From Spiroplasma endosymbiont of Lonchoptera lutea (lineage in GTDB: Bacteria; Bacillota_I; Bacilli_A; Mycoplasmatales; Nriv7), in the NCBI RefSeq assembly GCF_964019715.1, contig NZ_OZ026463.1, positions 310,001 to 374,000 on the forward strand: 64,000 bases of DNA. Direction: 5' to 3'. How positions within the stretch are numbered: the first letter of the stretch is position 1; each line of letters starts with the position of its first letter. The translations under genes and the position numbers were made by a program. This document shows, one piece after another, positions 44,715 to 62,601 of the stretch. Below the pieces are notes generated by a model. That model was given only the letters and a program-made list of their open reading frames with translations. It did no database searches and had not been told where the DNA came from.

Positions 44715-45775
44715 CCTGAATTGTAAATATAAATGGGACAGTTTTTTAAAATAATTGTATTAAATCTATTGGTCTTTTATAAGATAATGATTTTCTGGGT
44801 GTAGAATTAATTTGAAATGCTATAGAATTTAAGTCTTTTTGTTTATATGAAGATAAATCAGTAGATTTTGGTAAATATCTTCTTAAAATACCATTATTGT
44901 TCTCATTTAAACCTCTTTGACAAGGTTTTCCGGCATCTGCAAAATAAATTTTAACATTACAATTTTTTTCAATTAATTTTCATTTACTAAATTCTTTACC
45001 ACGATCAAAAGTAATGGTTTTAATTGTTCCTGGTATTAATTTTGAAATAAATTTTATTATACTTTGTGTAATACTTTCTGCTTTATGATTTTTAGTTTTC
45101 AAAGGAATTGTGGTTTTTGATCATATATCAGCTAAAGTAATAATAGAACTTTTATGATCTTTACCAACGATAGTATCTCCCTCTAAATGGCCAAATTCTT
45201 GTATATTTTTAATATTTGGAATGATTAAATTTCTTTCATGAATAGATTTACAATTATTAATTCTGCCCCTAGTTTCTTTTTGTTTATGAGGTTTATTTTT
45301 GCCTTTTCTCAATAAATTTTTTTCATCAAAACCCATTCGATTTGTTTTAAACATGTTATATAAAGTTTTTGTTGAAATATTTTTTATTTTATTTTTCTTT
45401 AAAAAATCAGCAATTATATCAAGAGCATAATTTTTAGTAATTAACAAATGATTGATAGTATTAATTTCTGTTAAAGTTAAAATTATTAATTTTCTACCTG
45501 CATTTTGTTTATTTTTTTGAACTTGATTCAATATTTCTAATGGTAATAAGTTTTGATTTAATAATTTACAAACTCTGTGTACAGTTGATTTACTATAATC
45601 AATTGCTTTTGCTATTTTACGAATAGAAAATCCATAACTTTTATATTCTTTTATTGCTATTATTGATTCAATAGTCAGATACTTATACATTGTGCTAATT
45701 CCTTTCTTTTCTTAATTATAGAATTAACACAATTTGTTTTTTATATAAGTGTCCTTTTTAATTTTACATTTCAGG
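44715..45775 (-). mobile_element. IS30-type element A, copy 7 (complete, TSD ATT)
   Basis: 1061 bp, flanked by ATT at 44712-44714 and 45776-45778. Removing the element restores TTTATTAATTAG..AAAATTCAC, which is found uninterrupted at about 58690-58710. The element ends 35 bp before the ATG of the secreted protein. Confidence 0.96.
44746..45690 (-). CDS. IS30-family transposase (element A, copy 7)
   Basis: 314 residues, consensus sequence, DDE core intact. Confidence 0.93.
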
Positions 45776-45810
45776 ATTAGTAAAAATTCACGAAAAGGAA
45801 GTTGACTAAT

Positions 45811-46275
45811 ATGAAAAAATTAATAGGATTAATAGGAACAATAACCATCGCCGGAAGCGGAATGGCAGGACTTGTTGGAAACGCACCAGCTATAGCAAAA
45901 AATAATATTAATTATCAACAAACAAATAATTTAGAAAATTTAAGTAGAAATAAAAGAAACATATTTGATGATGTTAAAAATTGATTTGATAACGCTGGTA
46001 AAGATACAGCATATTGAATAAATGATAAAATAAAAATTTACAATGTAATAAAAGAATTTCATCCCGGAGTTAAAAATGTTGACAAAATGCTTTCAGATTG
46101 TTTTGGTAGTGTAGAAGCAGCAAAAAATGTAGGAATTGCCACTGGAGGCGGAGCAGCAGCAGGAGCAAGCGGGGGGGGGGGCTATTGGAGCAGTTGCTGG
46201 TGGCGCTGCTGGTGTTGCTGCTTCTACAATAACTTGTATTGTCAATCATTAATTTATTTATATTGTAATTTATAA
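45811..46275 (+). CDS. Secreted glycine-zipper protein with an 11-G tract (probably phase-variable)
   Basis: Signal peptide MKKLIGLIGTITIAGSGMAG and the block LVGNAPA, then NLSRNKRN, a dibasic motif shared with 58733. The middle is Trp/Lys-rich. At 46171-46181 lie eleven G. As written, the frame continues into an unlikely Cys/Trp-rich end. With ten G it continues as AIGAVAGGAAGVAAST and stops at 46252, a glycine-zipper membrane hel­ix. So the sequenced cell is probably in an OFF or altered state. Start 45811 has AAAAGGAA upstream. Confidence 0.7.
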
Positions 46276-46496: not shown

Positions 46497-46964
46497 TTAA
46501 TTATTTTTTAATTCTGCTTTAAAAGATAATATTTTTATTGGAGTAGTAATTGTTTTGTTGGCAATTTTAACATGAATATTTGAAGCAATAAATTCTGTTT
46601 TATCAAACATTTTGTCATTTTTTATTGTAATTTTTAAGCTTTTAAGTTCGTTTCATACTATATCATTTTTCTCAAAATCTAAATCTTTTAAACCACAATT
46701 AAGTCTTCAATTTTCTTTACAACTGCTAGTTCCGTCATATTTTAATCACTTTGGAATATTAATAATTTCTTCTTCTTTGGTACTATAAAAATTTATTGTA
46801 TATTTATCGTTATATTTATATGTAATTTGAATTTTAACATTTGATAAATTTAATTTGTTAATTATTAACAGTTCGGCCGGTGACAATTGGTCTGGTTTAT
46901 TTGAACAAGCAGTTATAGATAATATTGTTAACCATAAACTAACTATTATATTTAAAATTTTCAT
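46497..46964 (-). CDS. Lipoprotein carrying the N-terminal domain of the adjacent viral adsorption-type protein
   Basis: 155 residues. Lipoprotein signal peptide with lipobox SITAC (Cys about 20), short linker (SNKPDQLSPAELL), then about 114 residues almost identical to the N-terminal domain of the protein encoded at 46999-48855 (NLSNVKIQITYKYND to KILSFKAE), ending LKNN. The 342-bp DNA match is 46512-46853 against 48379-48720. It would be displayed on the outer cell surface. It lies 35 bp downstream of the large gene on the same strand, so probably co-transcribed. Possible superinfection exclusion or receptor masking; an analogous gene is at 60259-60672. Confidence 0.85.
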
Positions 46965-46998
46965 TTTTTAACTCCTTTTATTTGTTTGAATTATAATT

Positions 46999-48855
46999 TT
47001 ACACAAAAATTCTTAATATCATTAAAAAGATGGCAAAACCGATTAAAAATTGAAAGGTGTAATAAAAGGCTGGTACTGTTTTAAAAACTGGAAAAATTGC
47101 GGTTGAAAAGTTAACTGTTGCTTTTGCGATAATTGCTAACGGTCGCAAAATCGTCATGATTTGTGAAGCAGTGAGTATTCAATTTATCATTTTGATGCCA
47201 GCGTTTTGAATGGCACATCCAATATCATTAAAAGTTGGTATTCATCGTCCAGAATATTTGCAATTTGCTGGCGAAATTAAGTCATCTCATTCACTGTTAT
47301 TTAAACTATCGGGGATAAAAGCTGTTGAATTTAATACATTAAAATCATAAATTTTAAAATTGTAGTTATAGATGTTACCTTTGTGATAAAGTGGAAAAGT
47401 TAAGGTAAAAATATTAATACCGTAACGAATATCAATATCGGTGTTGAGATAATTAATACTGTTAGCAGTCTTGCTGGTTGGCAAGGTAATCAGTTTATTA
47501 TCATAAGATTTAAGAACATTAAAATCAATTTGATAAATGCTATTGGTATTGTTAATAGCATTGTAATTATCTTGGTGCATTTTTTTGTCAAAAGTAAAGA
47601 AATAACTTCTTAGTAATAATTCTGAGTTTCCTATAATATTTACTAAGTATTTTTTGGGATAAAAGGTAATTAAGGAACGATAAAAGAAACCGATTTGAAT
47701 AAAGTAATCCTTCTTATAGTTTTCTATACCCTTAAAATCAATTTCAGTATGAGTTTTTTCGTCCATATCAAAAGTAGCATAAAATAAACTAGCAAAGAAG
47801 TTTCCAAGGATTTCATAGATTTCATCAAAAATATTTTTGTAATCACTGTTATTAATACTAGGAATGTTGTTTTTAAAATAAAGGTAAATGTCATTTCGTA
47901 AATCGGGGTCATATCGTAGAAAACTAAATTTAACACTAAGATAATTTAATGTTCCAAAAAGGTACTTAATTAGATAATAATCGTTAGTATTTGCAGTGTC
48001 ATATTTTCAAATTTCGCTTTCACCGTGTAATAATTGTAAATAGTTATTACCTGCAATTAAGGTTTTATTAAAAGCTTTAATTTTTAAAACATTTTCATTT
48101 ATTTTATCTTCACTAGTAGAACTTTTGTGATAAAAATAGCTTTCACTTTTAAAGCCGTGATTTTTAATCGTAAATTCTTTGTAATAACCTTTTTCTAAGG
48201 TGTCAATGAAATTAAATATTGGCGTTCAATATAAATAAGAATAATTGAATTTGTCAAAATCACCACGATGAATCATTAAATAGTTAAGGTTATCAATAAC
48301 ATCGCTATATTTATGTTTGCCATCAAAATTAGTGGTTGTTTCTGGTAAATCAATATCAGTTGTTGGTTTGATTTGTGCTTCTGCTTTAAAAGATAATATT
48401 TTTATTGGAGTAGTAATTGTTTTGTTGGCAATTTTAACATGAATATTTGAAGCAATAAATTCTGTTTTATCAAACATTTTGTCATTTTTTATTGTAATTT
48501 TTAAGCTTTTAAGTTCGTTTCATACTATATCATTTTTCTCAAAATCTAAATCTTTTAAACCACAATTAAGTCTTCAATTTTCTTTACAACTGCTAGTTCC
48601 GTCATATTTTAATCACTTTGGAATATTAATAATTTCTTCTTCTTTGGTACTATAAAAATTTATTGTATATTTATCGTTATATTTATATGTAATTTGAACT
48701 TTAACATTTGATAAATTTAACACATAAGTTTCTTCGCTTTCTCTTTTATTTCTAATTAATGATTGTGTTGTTGTTTCATTATTGTTAATGTTTTGGGGAA
48801 TGGTAAAAATGTTATTGAAACTAATAATTAACACGGTAAATATTTTCATAAACAT
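46999..48855 (-). CDS. Plectrovirus large adsorption-type (minor virion) protein
   Basis: 618 residues across several TGA Trp codons. Signal peptide MFMKIFTVLIISFNNIF, dibasic motif IRNKRES at about 38, variable N-terminal domain to about 160, Pro/Thr linker, conserved region (YLMIHRGDFDKFNYSYLYW, IGFFYRSLITFYPKKYL) and two C-terminal membrane helices. Position and anchor resemble the adsorption protein of filamentous phages. ATG at 48855 is preferred over an upstream GTG because GGAG lies 8 nt before it. A homologue with a different N-terminal domain is at 60726-62601. Confidence 0.82.
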
Positions 48856-48870
48856 TTTTATCACTCCTTT

Positions 48871-49143
48871 TTAAAATATTTTATTTTTCATTGTTCTTTT
48901 GGTTTTAATCTTTTTTAATATAAAACGAATTAAACAGTTCACTATTTCTGTTATGGTTAGTCATACTAAGGAATAACCTATAATCATTAACTTACCAATT
49001 GTTCCAAAATTTTTAATAAATTGTTGCAAATTTTCAATATCTGTATGTAATAATAAAACTATACTTAAAGATATGAATATAATGTAATTAAGTATTATTC
49101 ATCAATATCTTTTTAAAAAATTAATTAACTTGTTTAGTTTCAT
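48871..49143 (-). CDS. Plectrovirus small membrane protein (90 aa)
   Basis: 90 residues: YWWIILNYIIFISLSIVLLL, loop with DIENLQQFIKNFG, second helix and basic tail (KKIKTKRTMKNK). It precedes the adsorption-type gene by 15 bp and overlaps the stop of the gene before it. Homologues are at 37417-37677 and the fragment 9094-9175. Confidence 0.75.
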
Positions 49144-49177
49144 TTTTTAAGGCTCTTTTAAATTTAATTTTTTGAAT

Positions 49178-50238
49178 CCTGAAATGTAAAATTAAAAAGG
49201 ACACTTATATAAAAAACAAATTGTGTTAATTCTATAATTAAGAAAAGAAAGGAATTAGCACAATGTATAAGTATCTGACTATTGAATCAATAATAGCAAT
49301 AAAAGAATATAAAAGTTATGGATTTTCTATTCGTAAAATAGCAAAAGCAATTGATTATAGTAAATCAACTGTACACAGAGTTTGTAAATTATTAAATCAA
49401 AACTTATTACCATTAGAAATATTGAATCAAGTTCAAAAAAATAAACAAAATGCAGGTAGAAAATTAATAATTTTAACTTTAACAGAAATTAATACTATCA
49501 ATTATTTGTTAATTACTAAAAATTATGCTCTTGATATAATTGCTGATTTTTTAAAGAAAAATAAAATAAAAAATATTTCAACAAAAACTTTATATAACAT
49601 GTTTAAAACAAATCGAATGGGTTTTGATGAAAAAAATTTATTGAGAAAAGGCAAAAATAAACCTCATAAACAAAAAGAAACTAGGGGCAGAATTAATAAT
49701 TGTAAATCTATTCATGAAAGAAATTTAATCATTCCAAATATTAAAAATATACAAGAATTTGGCCATTTAGAGGGAGATACTATCGTTGGTAAAGATCATA
49801 AAAGTTCTATTATTACTTTAGCTGATCTATGATCAAAAACCACAATTCCTTTGAAAACTAAAAATCATAAAGCAGAAAGTATTACACAAAGTATAATAAA
49901 ATTTATTTCAAAATTAATACCAGGAACAATTAAAACTATTACTTTTGATCGTGGTAAAGAATTTAGTAAATGAAAATTAATTGAAAAAAATTGTAATGTT
50001 AAAATTTATTTTGCAGATGCCGGAAAACCTTGTCAAAGAGGTTTAAATGAGAACAATAATGGTATTTTAAGAAGATATTTACCAAAATCTACTGATTTAT
50101 CTTCATATAAACAAAAAGACTTAAATTCTATAGCATTTCAAATTAATTCTACACCCAGAAAATCATTATCTTATAAAAGACCAATAGATTTAATACAATT
50201 ATTTTAAAAAACTGTCCCATTTATATTTACAATTCAGG
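49178..50238 (+). mobile_element. IS30-type element A, copy 8 (complete, TSD AAT)
   Basis: 1061 bp. AAT at 49175-49177 and 50239-50241; the empty site at about 9205-9220 reads GAATAATAAAGCGG, confirming a 3-bp duplication for this element. Confidence 0.97.
49263..50207 (+). CDS. IS30-family transposase (element A, copy 8)
   Basis: 314 residues with H to Y (TINYLLI) and I to L near the core; DDE residues intact. Confidence 0.92.
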
Positions 50239-50599
50239 AATAATAAAGCGGATTAATTTTTCAAGTTTAATTGCAAAATATATTGCTCCGCCTCATCAGA
50301 AAATAAATATTCCTGCTAACATAATACCACTATTGAATTTACCAAAGAATTTAACCATCTCTTCATTCATAAATTTATTAAATTCATCCCTTGTTCCAGT
50401 TATTCATTTAGTATCGATTACTGTAAATGCACAAATTAATAAACTTATAAAGATGAAAATGATACTTAATATTATTTTTAACCACTGTTTTTTAAAAGAA
50501 TTTTTAATTCTTAATTTTAAAGGCGTTTTTTCTTTTGAATTGTCTTTTTTAAATAATTTTCCTAAAAATTTTTTCATTTTAATTCTCCCTTCATATTTT

Positions 50600-50848
50600 T
50601 TATCGTCCTTTAATCACAATAAATAAAGCAATAAATACACAAGTGACACCAAGAATGGTAAAGATTGGATGTTGCGAGAATGTCCGAGCCATTGGTTTAA
50701 ATAGTTCTAAAATTGTTAAATTGCTAGTAATAAACTTTTGAAAATTGGCAAGCCCTTCGTTAATATAGTTTGTTAAAGTTTCAAAATGACTACCAGCTAA
50801 AAGTCCAAGAACAGTTATTAAGATAAAAATAATAATTAGTTTAAATAT
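50600..50848 (-). CDS. Plectrovirus small membrane protein (82 aa), ATA in place of ATG
   Basis: Homologue of 9567-9815 with FKPMARTFSQHPIFTIL conserved. The start codon ATG of the other copies is ATA here, with no in-frame ATG nearby. ATA is a rare initiator in the mollicute code; otherwise the gene is silenced. Confidence 0.65.
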   Translation of the reverse strand: MFKLIIIFILITVLGLLAGSHFETLTNYINEGLANFQKFITSNLTILELFKPMARTFSQHPIFTILGVTCVFIALFIVIKGR

Positions 50849-50850
50849 TA

Positions 50851-51135
50851 TTAGTTACCTTGTTTTGCTTTTAATGGTTTTATTTGTTTTTTAGCTTTTC
50901 CTCACGCACTTAGCCGCCCTTTATTTTTAACGGCATATTGGCGTTGTTTTTCTAAATTAACTTGTTGACTACCAAATCCAAGAATAATTGCCATAAGAAA
51001 TTCTACAGCCAGCGTTAAGAATAAAGGAAATATTAGTTGAATATTCGTTCCTGGCACTTCAAGGCTTCAAATTAAATCAAAAACTTTATAAAGCATTTGG
51101 GCGAGAAAGTCGGCCATTTTTGCGAGATTTTCCAT
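50851..51135 (-). CDS. Plectrovirus small membrane protein (94 aa)
   Basis: Homologue of 9818-10102 (MENLAKMADFLAQMLYKVFD; LEVPGTNIQLIFPLFLTLAV; basic tail). Confidence 0.74.
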
Positions 51136-51141
51136 TTTTTA

Positions 51142-52125
51142 TTATTCCTTTTCTTTCATTTTTCTTAAAAATTTGCTGAATTTATCCATTTTTAAGTATT
51201 CTAAGTCTTCTAAATCAATTGCTGTGTCAGTATAGTATTTGTCTTCATAGTCAGGATTTACTTTTGCATTTAAGTAATCTCTTAAAAATGCTAGATAAAA
51301 AGAATTGTAAGTGTTTAATATTGGTAGAGGAATTTTTAGTTTAAAAAAATAAATATCAAGTTCAGGAATATCACGATATTTAATGCGACGGCCCCTTTTA
51401 TTATTTTTAGCATCAATTAAGGTGTTTCGTCAGCGTTCATATTCTTCAATGCTCGTAAAGGTGCCATAAATGACTTTTAAGTAGGGGCGAAAAATATTAA
51501 CTGGTTTTTTGCGAATTCCCACAATCACATTGTTGGCAATATCACGAACTTTAACTCAAATATGTTTATCTCTTTGACCGCTAGCCAACACAATATGACC
51601 AAAATGTCGTGCTAGAGCGAAATATTCTTGAATACCGGTTTCTTCGTTTTTGGTATTATTTTTTTCTCAATCAGTTCCTTCTAAAAATAAATTAGTTTCA
51701 TCTCACAAAAGTAAGGTTTTGTCCGGCAATACCGGATAATCAAAGTCTAACAATCCCATATGCCCTAAACTTAATTTTTGGGTTTCTAGTAATGGAAATG
51801 TTGATGCGATATGATATTTTTTCTTTTTTAGTAATTTTGATGCGTATACTAGAAAGGCGGTTTTTCCAGTTCCTAATGAACCAATAACAATATTTAATGG
51901 TGAGTTTTTTAAGAAATTAATAACTTTGTTAATTTGTGTTAAATTACTAATTTTAAAAAGGAAAATTAAAATACAACCTGCTAAAAATAAATAGCTCACA
52001 ATGTTTTTAAAATAACCGTTGTAAATATATCAAATTGCTCCTCAATGTCATAAAATTAAAAATGAGGTGCGATTTAATTCAATAAAATGGTTATTTTTTT
52101 CTATTATTCATTTGCAAAATTTCAT
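51142..52125 (-). CDS. Plectrovirus Zot-like morphogenesis ATPase
   Basis: 327 residues, nearly identical to 10106-11092: membrane segment, Walker A GSLGTGKTAF, Walker B LLLWDETNLFLEG. The stop has shifted one codon earlier (CAA to TAA). Confidence 0.87.
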
Positions 52126-52149
52126 CTTACACCTCACTTTATTTTTTTA

Positions 52150-52398
52150 TTAGCGTACTGCTCCAAGTAGTTTTTCAAACATTTTAAAGCAAATAAAGAA
52201 TATTGCCAAAATAAATGGAAAAATGAATATTCAATAGTCAGCAAAGAAGTTACCAACTTGTGGCATATTAACAGCAATAATTTCTCACATTTTAGTAAAC
52301 GCTGTTATGATCGCATTTCATAATTTAGTCATTGCGTCACTAGCTGTTATTTTTTCTACTGTTACTGGTGTTTCTCCCACTAAGAAAATTCCAATCAT
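52150..52398 (-). CDS. Plectrovirus probable major coat protein
   Basis: 82 residues; the C-terminal 65 match 11117-11362 exactly while the N-terminus differs (MIGIFLVGETPVTVEK versus MIGTFLADAPATVEK). Strong SD GGGGGTG. Confidence 0.72.
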
Positions 52399-52447
52399 AT
52401 AATCACCCCCTTTCTTTTAATATAACTTCTTGACATTAATTTCGCTT

Positions 52448-52678
52448 CTATCTAAATACTGATATGGTTTTCCAAAGTAGCATTAGAATAAATCACACCA
52501 TAATTGCTGTTAAAAATCAAAAAGCAATGTTTGCTATTAAAAGTCAAAGTGGTGCTTCTATTAATTTAATTTCTTTACCACCAGTAACATGCGCCGGGAT
52601 AGTTGTAATTTGAATAAATAAATCTCAGAAAGTTTGTTTAATTTGTTCTCAATTAAATTCTTTTAAATTTATTGTCAT
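52448..52678 (-). CDS. Plectrovirus small membrane protein (76 aa)
   Basis: Homologue of 11528-11758 (NWEQIKQTFWDLFIQ, PAHVTGGKEI, C-terminal helix). Confidence 0.72.
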
Positions 52679-52681
52679 TTT

Positions 52682-52843
52682 TTATCTCCCAAAAATCATT
52701 TTTATTGGTAAATACATAATTGAGATTAATGCGAAAATAAAAGTAATTATAATAATTAATTCGGCAATAAACGCAACTTGTGTAGGCATTTTTTCTATCG
52801 GAACAAACAGTTTTAAGAATTCCATAATAATTTCTCAAAACAT
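52682..52843 (-). CDS. Plectrovirus very small membrane protein (53 aa)
   Basis: Homologue of 11762-11923: MFWEIIMEFLKLFVPIEKMP and one membrane helix. Start overlaps previous stop. Confidence 0.7.
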
Positions 52844-53064
52844 TATTTTTCATCCTCGTTATTTTCTTTTGAATTAGGAGCTTTAACTCATTCTTTAAAG
52901 CGAGCAATAAATACTTTTTCGTCTTTTGTAAAATTACCAGAATTATTTTTAATGGCATTTTTATATTTAATTCGCATTTTTATTTTGGCATAAATTTTAT
53001 AAGCAAAATATGCCGATAGCATTATGCTGATAATAATAAATATTAGTCCAATTGCAATATTCAT
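52843..53064 (-). CDS. Plectrovirus single-span membrane protein (73 aa)
   Basis: Homologue of 11923-12144 with the GNFTKDEKVFIARFKEWVK tail. Confidence 0.72.
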
Positions 53065-53066
53065 TT

Positions 53067-53393
53067 TTAAACTCCTTTAAAATAGTTATAATTTGTATCT
53101 TTTTTATTGTTTTCTTTTTCGACAATGAAGAAACTTAATAATTCTTGTCCTTTAATTAACTTGGTTTCTTGCTCTGGTTGATTAATTGAAATTACTTGGT
53201 ATTCATTATTCTTGATTATTCCGATGCAAATTGAATTTTCATATTTTCCTTTATAAACAAATCGTTTTGGAAACCAAATACCGATTTGTTTATTAAATCA
53301 CGGAATTTTTGGTGCCTTGATTAAAATTGCGTTTTGAGTTTCTTTTAAGAGATATTTTTTAGTATTTAAGAAAATGTTTTCAATTTTTTTCAT
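53067..53393 (-). CDS. Plectrovirus soluble protein of unknown function (108 aa)
   Basis: Homologue of 12147-12476; one residue shorter. First gene of the second viral transcription unit. Confidence 0.66.
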
Positions 53394-60258: not shown

Positions 60259-60672
60259 TTAATGAGGCATTTCCGCTGAGAATGAAGTTATATAATGTTT
60301 AAAATCGTGTAGTTTATCCACTAATCCAATTGTAATTTTTACATTGACAATTTCTGATATAGTATAAATATCTGTTTTAAATCCACTACCAGGAGTATTA
60401 AAAGATTGTAATGTTCCATTTTTTTTATAAAAATTAAACGCAGAAATTCAGTTTTTATAACCAAACAAACGAAATCGGTTGGGATATTCAAGCTCAACAT
60501 CACTAGGTCAAGTAAAACCGCTTTCACTTATATCTAATCAATAATCACCATGATGAATTAATTTAGTTTTTTTCAAACTGGGAAATTGCAGTTTTTTTTC
60601 AAAAATACTAGGACTACATCCAAAAATAAACATTATACAAACTGAATTTAAAGCTAATAAAAATTTTCGCAT
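60259..60672 (-). CDS. Lipoprotein carrying the N-terminal domain of the adjacent viral adsorption-type protein (second virus)
   Basis: 137 residues. Signal peptide with lipobox MFIFGC (Cys about 19), short linker, then about 105 residues matching the N-terminal domain encoded at the start of 60726-62601 (NTKLIHHGDYWLDISESGF to HYITSFSAEMP), ending PH. DNA match is 60267-60567 against 62114-62415, almost identical. Unlike the large gene, its A-tract has eight A and the frame is open. Same layout as 46497-46964 but an unrelated domain sequence. Confidence 0.85.
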
Positions 60673-60725
60673 AAAGAAAAATCCTCCTTTCAAAGGAATT
60701 ATATTATAAAAAATAATGGCAATAT

Positions 60726-62601
60726 TTAAGAAAACTTTTTTAATATCATTAATAAGATTGCTAATGGCACTACAAATTCAAATAACATCTGAAATGCTGG
60801 AATAACTTCAAACACCGGAAAGGCGGTTTTGGTAAAATTAATCGTCGTTTTAGCAATATCAGCAATAGGGCGAATTAAAAGATTAATCCCAGAAAGACCA
60901 AGTAATCAATTCAACATACTAACAGAAGCATGCTGAATTCCACACGATACTGCATTAAATAAACCTCAATAAGAACAGCTGGGTATAGGAATTAAGTCAT
61001 CCATATTGCCACTTATTCCGCCACCAATAAAAGCTGTTGAATTCAAAATGTTAAAATCGTATAAAAAATAATGATATTCAGTGCTTTCATTTTTCTTTTT
61101 ATATAGCGGAAAAGTCAGTGTAAAAATATTAATTCCATACATCACATCGACTTTAGCGTTATAAAAATGCAGTTTATTATTAGTGGTGTTTCATAATTGG
61201 TTATCATATGCTTTTAAAACATTAAAATCTATTTGATAAGAACTTTTACCAGTATTAAAACCATTGACAATTTGTTTATCTTTAACAAAGAAATAAGAAC
61301 GAAAAATCATATTCTTACTATTTTCGATTGTTGAACCAAAGTTAATTAAATACTGTTTGGGATAAAAAGTAATTAAGGAACGATAGAAAAACCCCATTTG
61401 TAAAACATTTTCAGGGATTTGTTGCATCCCTTTGTAATCTAATTCTACATAAGTAGAAGCATCTGTATCAAAACTCGCATAAAAGAATTGTACAAAAAAC
61501 TCACCTAAAACTTTATAAATTTTATTAAATAAATCATTAATGAAATCAATAGTTAAATCTTTTTGATAATGAAGCATAAAATCTTTAAAATCAAATTTTA
61601 ATTTATCATCATAGCGTAAAAAATAGAAGGTATTACCATAATAATTAACTTGTCCAAAAAAGGTATTAATAAAATCTCTTCCAAAACTTGTTCGCGAGCC
61701 AGATTTTCAAAGCGATTTACCATTTTCTAAAAACTCATTATGACCCACAATGCTACCGTGCTCCGTTTTTATAGTAATAACATCACCAAAACTAGAAAAG
61801 GAAAGTTCTCTAAAAATAACTTTTTCCATCATATCAGGTTTAGGATACGAATTTTTGCGACTTAAACTAAATTTACTATTTTGTTTAAAACCATTTAATT
61901 TAATTGAAATTTCACTCATATATTTAAAATTATCGTCAAAGAAATTAAAAATGGGTACTCAATATAAATAGCTATAATTAAATTTATCAAAATCTCGGCG
62001 TTGTATCATTAAATAATCTAATTTATCTTGAAACTGATTATATTGATATTCACCATCATTTTTAGTTATTTCCGTAGGCAATGGTTGTTCGTTATCTTTT
62101 TCTGGTAAAGGGGGCATTTCCGCTGAGAATGAAGTTATATAATGTTTAAAATCGTGTAGTTTATCCACTAATCCAATTGTAATTTTTACATTGACAATTT
62201 CTGATATAGTATAAATATCTGTTTTAAATCCACTACCAGGAGTATTAAAAGATTGTAATGTTCCATTTTTTTTTATAAAAATTAAACGCAGAAATTCAGT
62301 TTTTATAACCAAACAAACGAAATCAGTTGGGATATTCAAGCTCAACATCACTAGGTCAAGTAAAACCGCTTTCACTTATATCTAATCAATAATCACCATG
62401 ATGAATTAATTTAGTGTTTTTTAAACTAGCAAACTTTAACTCACAGCTATTACCACATTGATTAGGGTTGGCGGCTCGTTTTTCTCGTTTCATAAAAAAT
62501 TGTTCCATATTAGGTTTTGATGGTTTTTTTGTATCAAAGAAGGCACCTAGAGGGACTAAACCAATAAAAGCGATAACTAACCACGATATAAATTTATACA
62601 T
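60726..62601 (-). pseudogene. Plectrovirus large adsorption-type protein, frameshifted at A9
   Basis: About 620 residues if corrected. Signal peptide MYKFISWLVIAFIGLVPLG, KREKR basic motif, N-terminal domain, Pro-rich linker (PPLPEKDNEQPLP), then the part shared with 46999-48855 (YLMIQRRDFDKFNYSYLYW, MGFFYRSLITFYPKQYL) and C-terminal membrane helices. At about 62267-62275 nine A replace the eight found in the lipoprotein copy and stop the frame after KKKWNITIF. Slippage, inactivation or sequencing error. Confidence 0.82.

What the first reader, a model, noticed from the sequence alone, without database searches (positions are those of the whole stretch)
46168..46185. Eleven-G homopolymer inside a secreted-protein gene
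Seen: G11 in a genome of about 25% G+C. With ten G the frame ends as a glycine-zipper helix (AIGAVAGGAAGVAAST...); with eleven it ends in an implausible Cys/Trp-rich tail. Known: long G-tracts in surface-protein genes are classic slipped-strand phase-variation switches. Inference: ON/OFF or tail switching of a small exported protein.
Basis: partly seen in the sequence, partly recalled or inferred. Interest (0 to 1): 0.68.

Follow-up and report, generated by a model that had tools for sequence, protein, structure and literature searches.

The report
G-tract switch in Spiroplasma secreted-protein family
A run of eleven G's, far longer than chance allows, sits in the gene of a small exported protein of a Spiroplasma, and near-identical sister loci in the same genome differ in the length of a similar G-run in their promoter, so the bacterium probably switches such proteins by copying slips at G-runs, as some mycoplasmas and Neisseria do.

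Summary
In detail: G11 at 46171-46181, the window's longest homopolymer and one of only three G-runs of 9 or more in the 1.33-Mb genome (0.16 expected; 0.004 for 11 or more). The gene (ATG 45811, code 4) encodes a signal peptide, an RNKR motif and 120 codons up to the tract. A second copy, also G11, lies in a duplicated plectrovirus/IS30 block. As assembled, the tract leads into a Cys/Trp-rich tail with atypical codons (GC3 0.45); another frame, a glycine-zipper tail, has genome-typical codons (0.09); the third is Leu-rich. The strongest evidence lies outside the window: the gene belongs to a large exported-protein family, and the genome's only other G-run of 9 or more (G12) sits in the promoter of another member. 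A near-identical locus (2 mismatches in about 1.75 kb) has G6 there, so such a tract does change length. Sister species carry G-runs in a family promoter and a family signal peptide. MutS was not found. Best reading: slipped-strand contingency loci, a known mechanism that I found unreported for Spiroplasma. For the focal gene itself switching is unproven; both copies are G11, and an IS30 insertion sits 35 bp upstream. Decay or assembly error remain possible.

The parts
45811..46275 (+). Exported-protein gene as assembled (code 4): signal peptide, RNKR motif, tract, Cys/Trp-rich tail
   Evidence: family N-terminus
45811..45897 (+). Signal peptide, likely cleaved after ...NAPAIA; no lipobox Cys
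   Evidence: read from the sequence; NCBIfam lipoprotein model only below cut-off
45946..45957 (+). RNKR motif shared by many family members
46171..46181 (+). G11 homopolymer
46184..46252 (+). Downstream frame with genome-typical codons (glycine-zipper tail, GC3 0.09)
46182..46232 (+). Third downstream frame, Leu-rich tail (GC3 0.71)
45776..45810 (+). Remnant of the family leader (AAAAATTCACG...) before the ATG; the -10 region is replaced by the IS30 end
44746..45690 (-). IS30-type transposase of the element inserted upstream
46497..53393 (-). Plectrovirus-like block next to the gene; about 4.7 kb around the gene recurs at genome position 653037

Best explanation
The G11 is a slipped-strand contingency tract in an exported-protein gene of a Spiroplasma. 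During replication the tract gains or loses G's, uncorrected because mismatch repair (MutS) is lacking. Its length modulo three decides which of three short downstream frames follows the exported N-terminal part: a glycine-zipper tail with normal codon usage, a Cys/Trp-rich tail (the state assembled), or a Leu-rich tail. The effect would be ON/OFF or tail switching. The same process acts on promoters of sister genes, where a G-run lies just upstream of the -10 element and its length sets the spacing. Shown: the tract and its improbability, the frames and their codon usage, the shared family, a length change between near-identical family promoters, no MutS. Inferred: switching of this particular tract, its effect on protein and expression, and any benefit.
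For: Excess of long G-runs only (3 of 11 or more against 0.004 expected). All three lie in this gene family, which covers about 1% of the genome. G12 versus G6 is nearly the only difference between two loci over about 1.75 kb. The same promoter has G5 and G6 in two other species. G8 in another family promoter and in a family signal peptide in sister species. Over five genomes 6 of 48 runs of G8 or more lie in family territory, 0.68 expected, P 8e-5, or 0.005 with near-duplicates merged. A small membrane-protein gene of one sister species has C10 or C12 in copies 99.4% alike. Codon usage marks another downstream frame as the original one. No MutS (genus-wide in PMC8208695).
Against: Both copies of the focal gene have the same length. 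The IS30 insertion has removed the family's -10 region. No isolate, read or transcript data were available. The mature part has no relative, so selection on it cannot be tested. The tract is near the end of the gene, where classic OFF switches are less common.
Confidence: 0.55

Rival explanations
1. Decaying gene: a GC-rich Gly/Ala-coding stretch grew a long G-run by chance, slipped out of frame and was duplicated with its prophage/IS block. The tract has no switching role and the gene is a pseudogene.
For: IS30 insertion in the promoter region of both copies; out-of-frame tail by codon usage; orphan mature part; identical length in both copies.
Against: The 120 codons before the tract are open with normal codon usage; the family-wide clustering and the length change of such tracts in promoters are not explained.
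Confidence: 0.25
2. Assembly or sequencing error in the tract length; the true length keeps the original frame.
For: Long homopolymers are the commonest error of long-read assemblies (general knowledge), and the assembled frame is the atypical one.
Against: An error of a base or so cannot create a tract this long. Fifteen IS30 copies with A7 runs in the window show one gap in all. The G12/G6 difference of six bases is larger than usual errors.
Confidence: 0.15
3. Programmed slippage of RNA polymerase or ribosome at the G-run makes a fixed mixture of tails without change in the DNA.
For: A long G-run at the joint of coding frames would permit it; nothing here excludes it.
Against: Does not account for G-runs in promoters, before any coding frame.
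Confidence: 0.05

Closest known systems
Mycoplasma hyorhinis vlp genes (poly-A tract in the promoter region; as described in PMC10502178)
   Same: Mollicute exported-protein family; homopolymer length change in the promoter region
   Different: Poly-A in all vlp genes; here poly-G and only in some family members; vlp are lipoproteins and their switching is shown by experiment
Mycoplasma mycoides vmm (dinucleotide repeat in the promoter spacer; as described in PMC10502178)
   Same: Repeat length between promoter elements as the presumed switch
   Different: Dinucleotide repeat; single gene; switching shown in clones
Neisseria meningitidis G/C-tract phase-variable genes (PMC5084427)
   Same: G/C homopolymers in coding sequences and upstream regions of surface-protein genes; there, tracts of 8 or more were mostly found variable, and some change the protein's end
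   Different: Variation was measured in reads there; many such tracts per genome, here only a handful in a 26% G+C genome
Exported proteins and toxins of heritable Spiroplasma (PMC10232968)
   Same: Expanding multi-copy secreted repertoire near phage and plasmid genes
   Different: No homopolymer switching described there; the focal mature part carries no known toxin domain

Membership tests
Slipped-strand contingency (phase-variable) locus | Repeat tract far longer than chance in a gene or promoter | tested here: met
   G11 and G12, 0.004 expected per genome
Slipped-strand contingency (phase-variable) locus | Tract length differs between otherwise near-identical sequences, focal tract | tested here: inconclusive
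   Two genomic copies, both G11; no other strain found
Slipped-strand contingency (phase-variable) locus | Tract length differs between otherwise near-identical sequences, family promoter tract | tested here: met
   G12 against G6 with 2 mismatches in about 1.75 kb; G5 and G6 in sister species
Slipped-strand contingency (phase-variable) locus | Length change alters frame or promoter spacing | tested here: met
   Three different tails by frame; tract lies just upstream of the -10-like element in the sister promoters
Slipped-strand contingency (phase-variable) locus | Mixed lengths in a population and reversible change of expression | not testable with these tools
   Needs reads, isolates and expression data
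Spiroplasma exported-protein family (MKKLLGILGTITIAGSG...NLENLxRNKR) | Shared signal-peptide region and RNKR-like motif | tested here: met
   22 places at E 0.01 or better in the own genome, 14 to 39 in each sister genome
Spiroplasma exported-protein family (MKKLLGILGTITIAGSG...NLENLxRNKR) | Conserved leader and -10 region before the ATG | tested here: inconclusive
   Leader kept, -10 region replaced by the IS30 end

The most novel reading that the evidence does not exclude
Spiroplasma of this genus use poly-G tracts in promoters and coding sequences to switch members of a large exported-protein family within one host's symbiont population, which could help explain why Spiroplasma phenotypes come and go spontaneously in fly stocks.
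Probability: 0.3. Interest if true: 0.75.

Novelty: new variant of a known kind. Interest (0 to 1): 0.5.

Why it matters
No paper found in the searched library describes homopolymer phase variation in Spiroplasma. Spiroplasma phenotypes are repeatedly lost spontaneously in Drosophila cultures, and the genus lacks mutS and mutL (PMC8208695). A reversible switch on exported proteins would be a testable cause of such loss besides gene deletion, and tract lengths can be read from existing sequence data.

Tried and rejected
Pfam, NCBIfam and PHROGs gave no family for the focal protein. IMG/VR contigs, phage and plasmid records gave no relative or only weak N-terminal matches. The mature part alone was sought in the five genomes of the genus and found only in the two own copies. 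A single-sequence AlphaFold2 model of the part before the tract is too poor to use (mean pLDDT 43.5), so no fold search was made. A sigma-70 scan found about as many sites as shuffles. A general G-run habit of the family's promoters was considered and rejected: of 85 distinct upstream regions only two promoter groups reach G6 or more, with one more relative at G5. Coding stretches behind some G-tract promoters are withheld by the data source and read as N; I did not pursue them. The tails were searched and described as separate pieces, not joined to the upstream frame.

Full report
Observation. The window comes from a Spiroplasma: TGA is read as Trp, G+C is 26%, and there are many IS30 copies and plectrovirus-like blocks. 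The genome has 1,332,076 bases in one contig; the window is 310001-374000 of it. The G11 is at 46171-46181 and is the longest homopolymer of the window; A and T runs stop at 9. From dinucleotide content, 0.0002 G/C runs of 11 or more are expected in the window and 0.004 in the genome. The genome has 31 runs of G6 or more against about 35 expected, 5 of G8 or more against 0.96, and 3 of G11 or more against 0.004. Only the longest runs are in excess.

The gene. From ATG 45811 an open frame of 120 codons leads to the tract: a signal peptide ending in NAPAIA, an RNKR motif, and a mature part without relatives in Pfam, NCBIfam or PHROGs or in the other four genomes of the genus. Behind the tract the three frames end after 17, 23 and 31 codons including the stop. 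The frame read as assembled is Cys/Trp-rich with GC3 0.45, a second (glycine zipper) has GC3 0.09 and the third (Leu-rich) 0.71; the gene before the tract has 0.13. The glycine-zipper frame is therefore the likely original one, and the assembled tract does not lead into it.

Context. The gene lies between an IS30 element and a plectrovirus-like block. About 4.7 kb including the gene recurs at genome position 653037 with 5 substitutions and a two-base difference in a T-run; the gene and its G11 are identical. In both copies the IS30 end lies about 35 bp before the ATG, where other family members have a conserved -10 region. Expression of this gene is thus doubtful unless the IS end supplies a promoter.

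Family. The N-terminal 50-60 residues are shared with about 20 further places in the genome and with 14 to 39 in each of the four other genomes of the genus. The leader before the ATG is shared too. The only other G-run above 8 in the genome, G12, lies about 57 bp before the ATG of such a gene. A second locus matches this one over about 1.75 kb with two substitutions and one six-base gap, which lies in the tract: G12 versus G6. The same promoter has G5 and G6 in two other species. One other species has two loci with G8 in a different promoter of the family, and another has G8 in a family signal peptide that puts it out of frame. Over five genomes, 6 of 48 runs of G8 or more lie in family territory, expected 0.68 (P 8e-5; 0.005 if near-duplicates are merged); all six have the G's on the coding strand. 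In one of these species a small membrane-protein gene has a C-run of 10 or 12 in copies that are 99.4% alike, again with different protein ends.

Mechanism. Long G-runs plus the lack of MutS (mutS and mutL are lacking across the genus, PMC8208695) favour slipped-strand change. The G12/G6 pair shows that such change has happened in this genome; since the distance to the -10 element is nearly the only difference between the two promoters, an effect on transcription is likely but unmeasured. For the focal gene the effect would be a change of tail or loss of the proper tail. That both copies have the same length is mildly against a fast switch there, unless gene conversion or the assembly evened them out.

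Alternatives. Decay of a prophage-borne gene is the main rival and is favoured by the IS insertion. An assembly error is possible but cannot explain the exceptional length itself; fifteen IS30 copies with A7 runs show one gap in all. Transcriptional or ribosomal slippage is not excluded but would not explain the promoter tracts.

Novelty. The mechanism is known from Mycoplasma hyorhinis vlp and M. mycoides vmm (PMC10502178) and from Neisseria (PMC5084427). In the library searched no paper reports it for Spiroplasma; that is an absence from an open-access library, not proof. I file it as a new variant of a known kind; the evidence at family level is stronger than that for the gene in the window.

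Noticed in passing
window 46497-48864 and 60259-62601, minus strand: In two different plectrovirus-like blocks a short lipoprotein-like ORF next to the phage's large adsorption-like protein carries a near-identical copy (342 bp at 99.7%, 315 bp at 98.7%) of that protein's N-terminal part, although the two blocks differ from each other. A decoy against superinfection or a cassette for domain exchange are possible readings.
   Followed up: partly
L060, L085/L098, L099, L100 (another species of the genus): Small membrane-protein genes (MQEQKNK...) carry a G9 run near the start and, in some copies, a C10 or C12 run near the end; C10 and C12 copies, 99.4% alike, end differently.
   Followed up: partly
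L094, L097 (another species of the genus): G8 runs sit at the ribosome-binding site just before a plectrovirus coat-like gene.
   Followed up: no
L019 (genome position about 92235): Another family gene has an IS30 end directly before its ATG, as the focal gene has 35 bp before.
   Followed up: no
window 45754 and its counterpart in L104: The IS30 end upstream of the two gene copies differs by two T's in a T-run, which changes the spacing of any promoter the IS end may provide.
   Followed up: no
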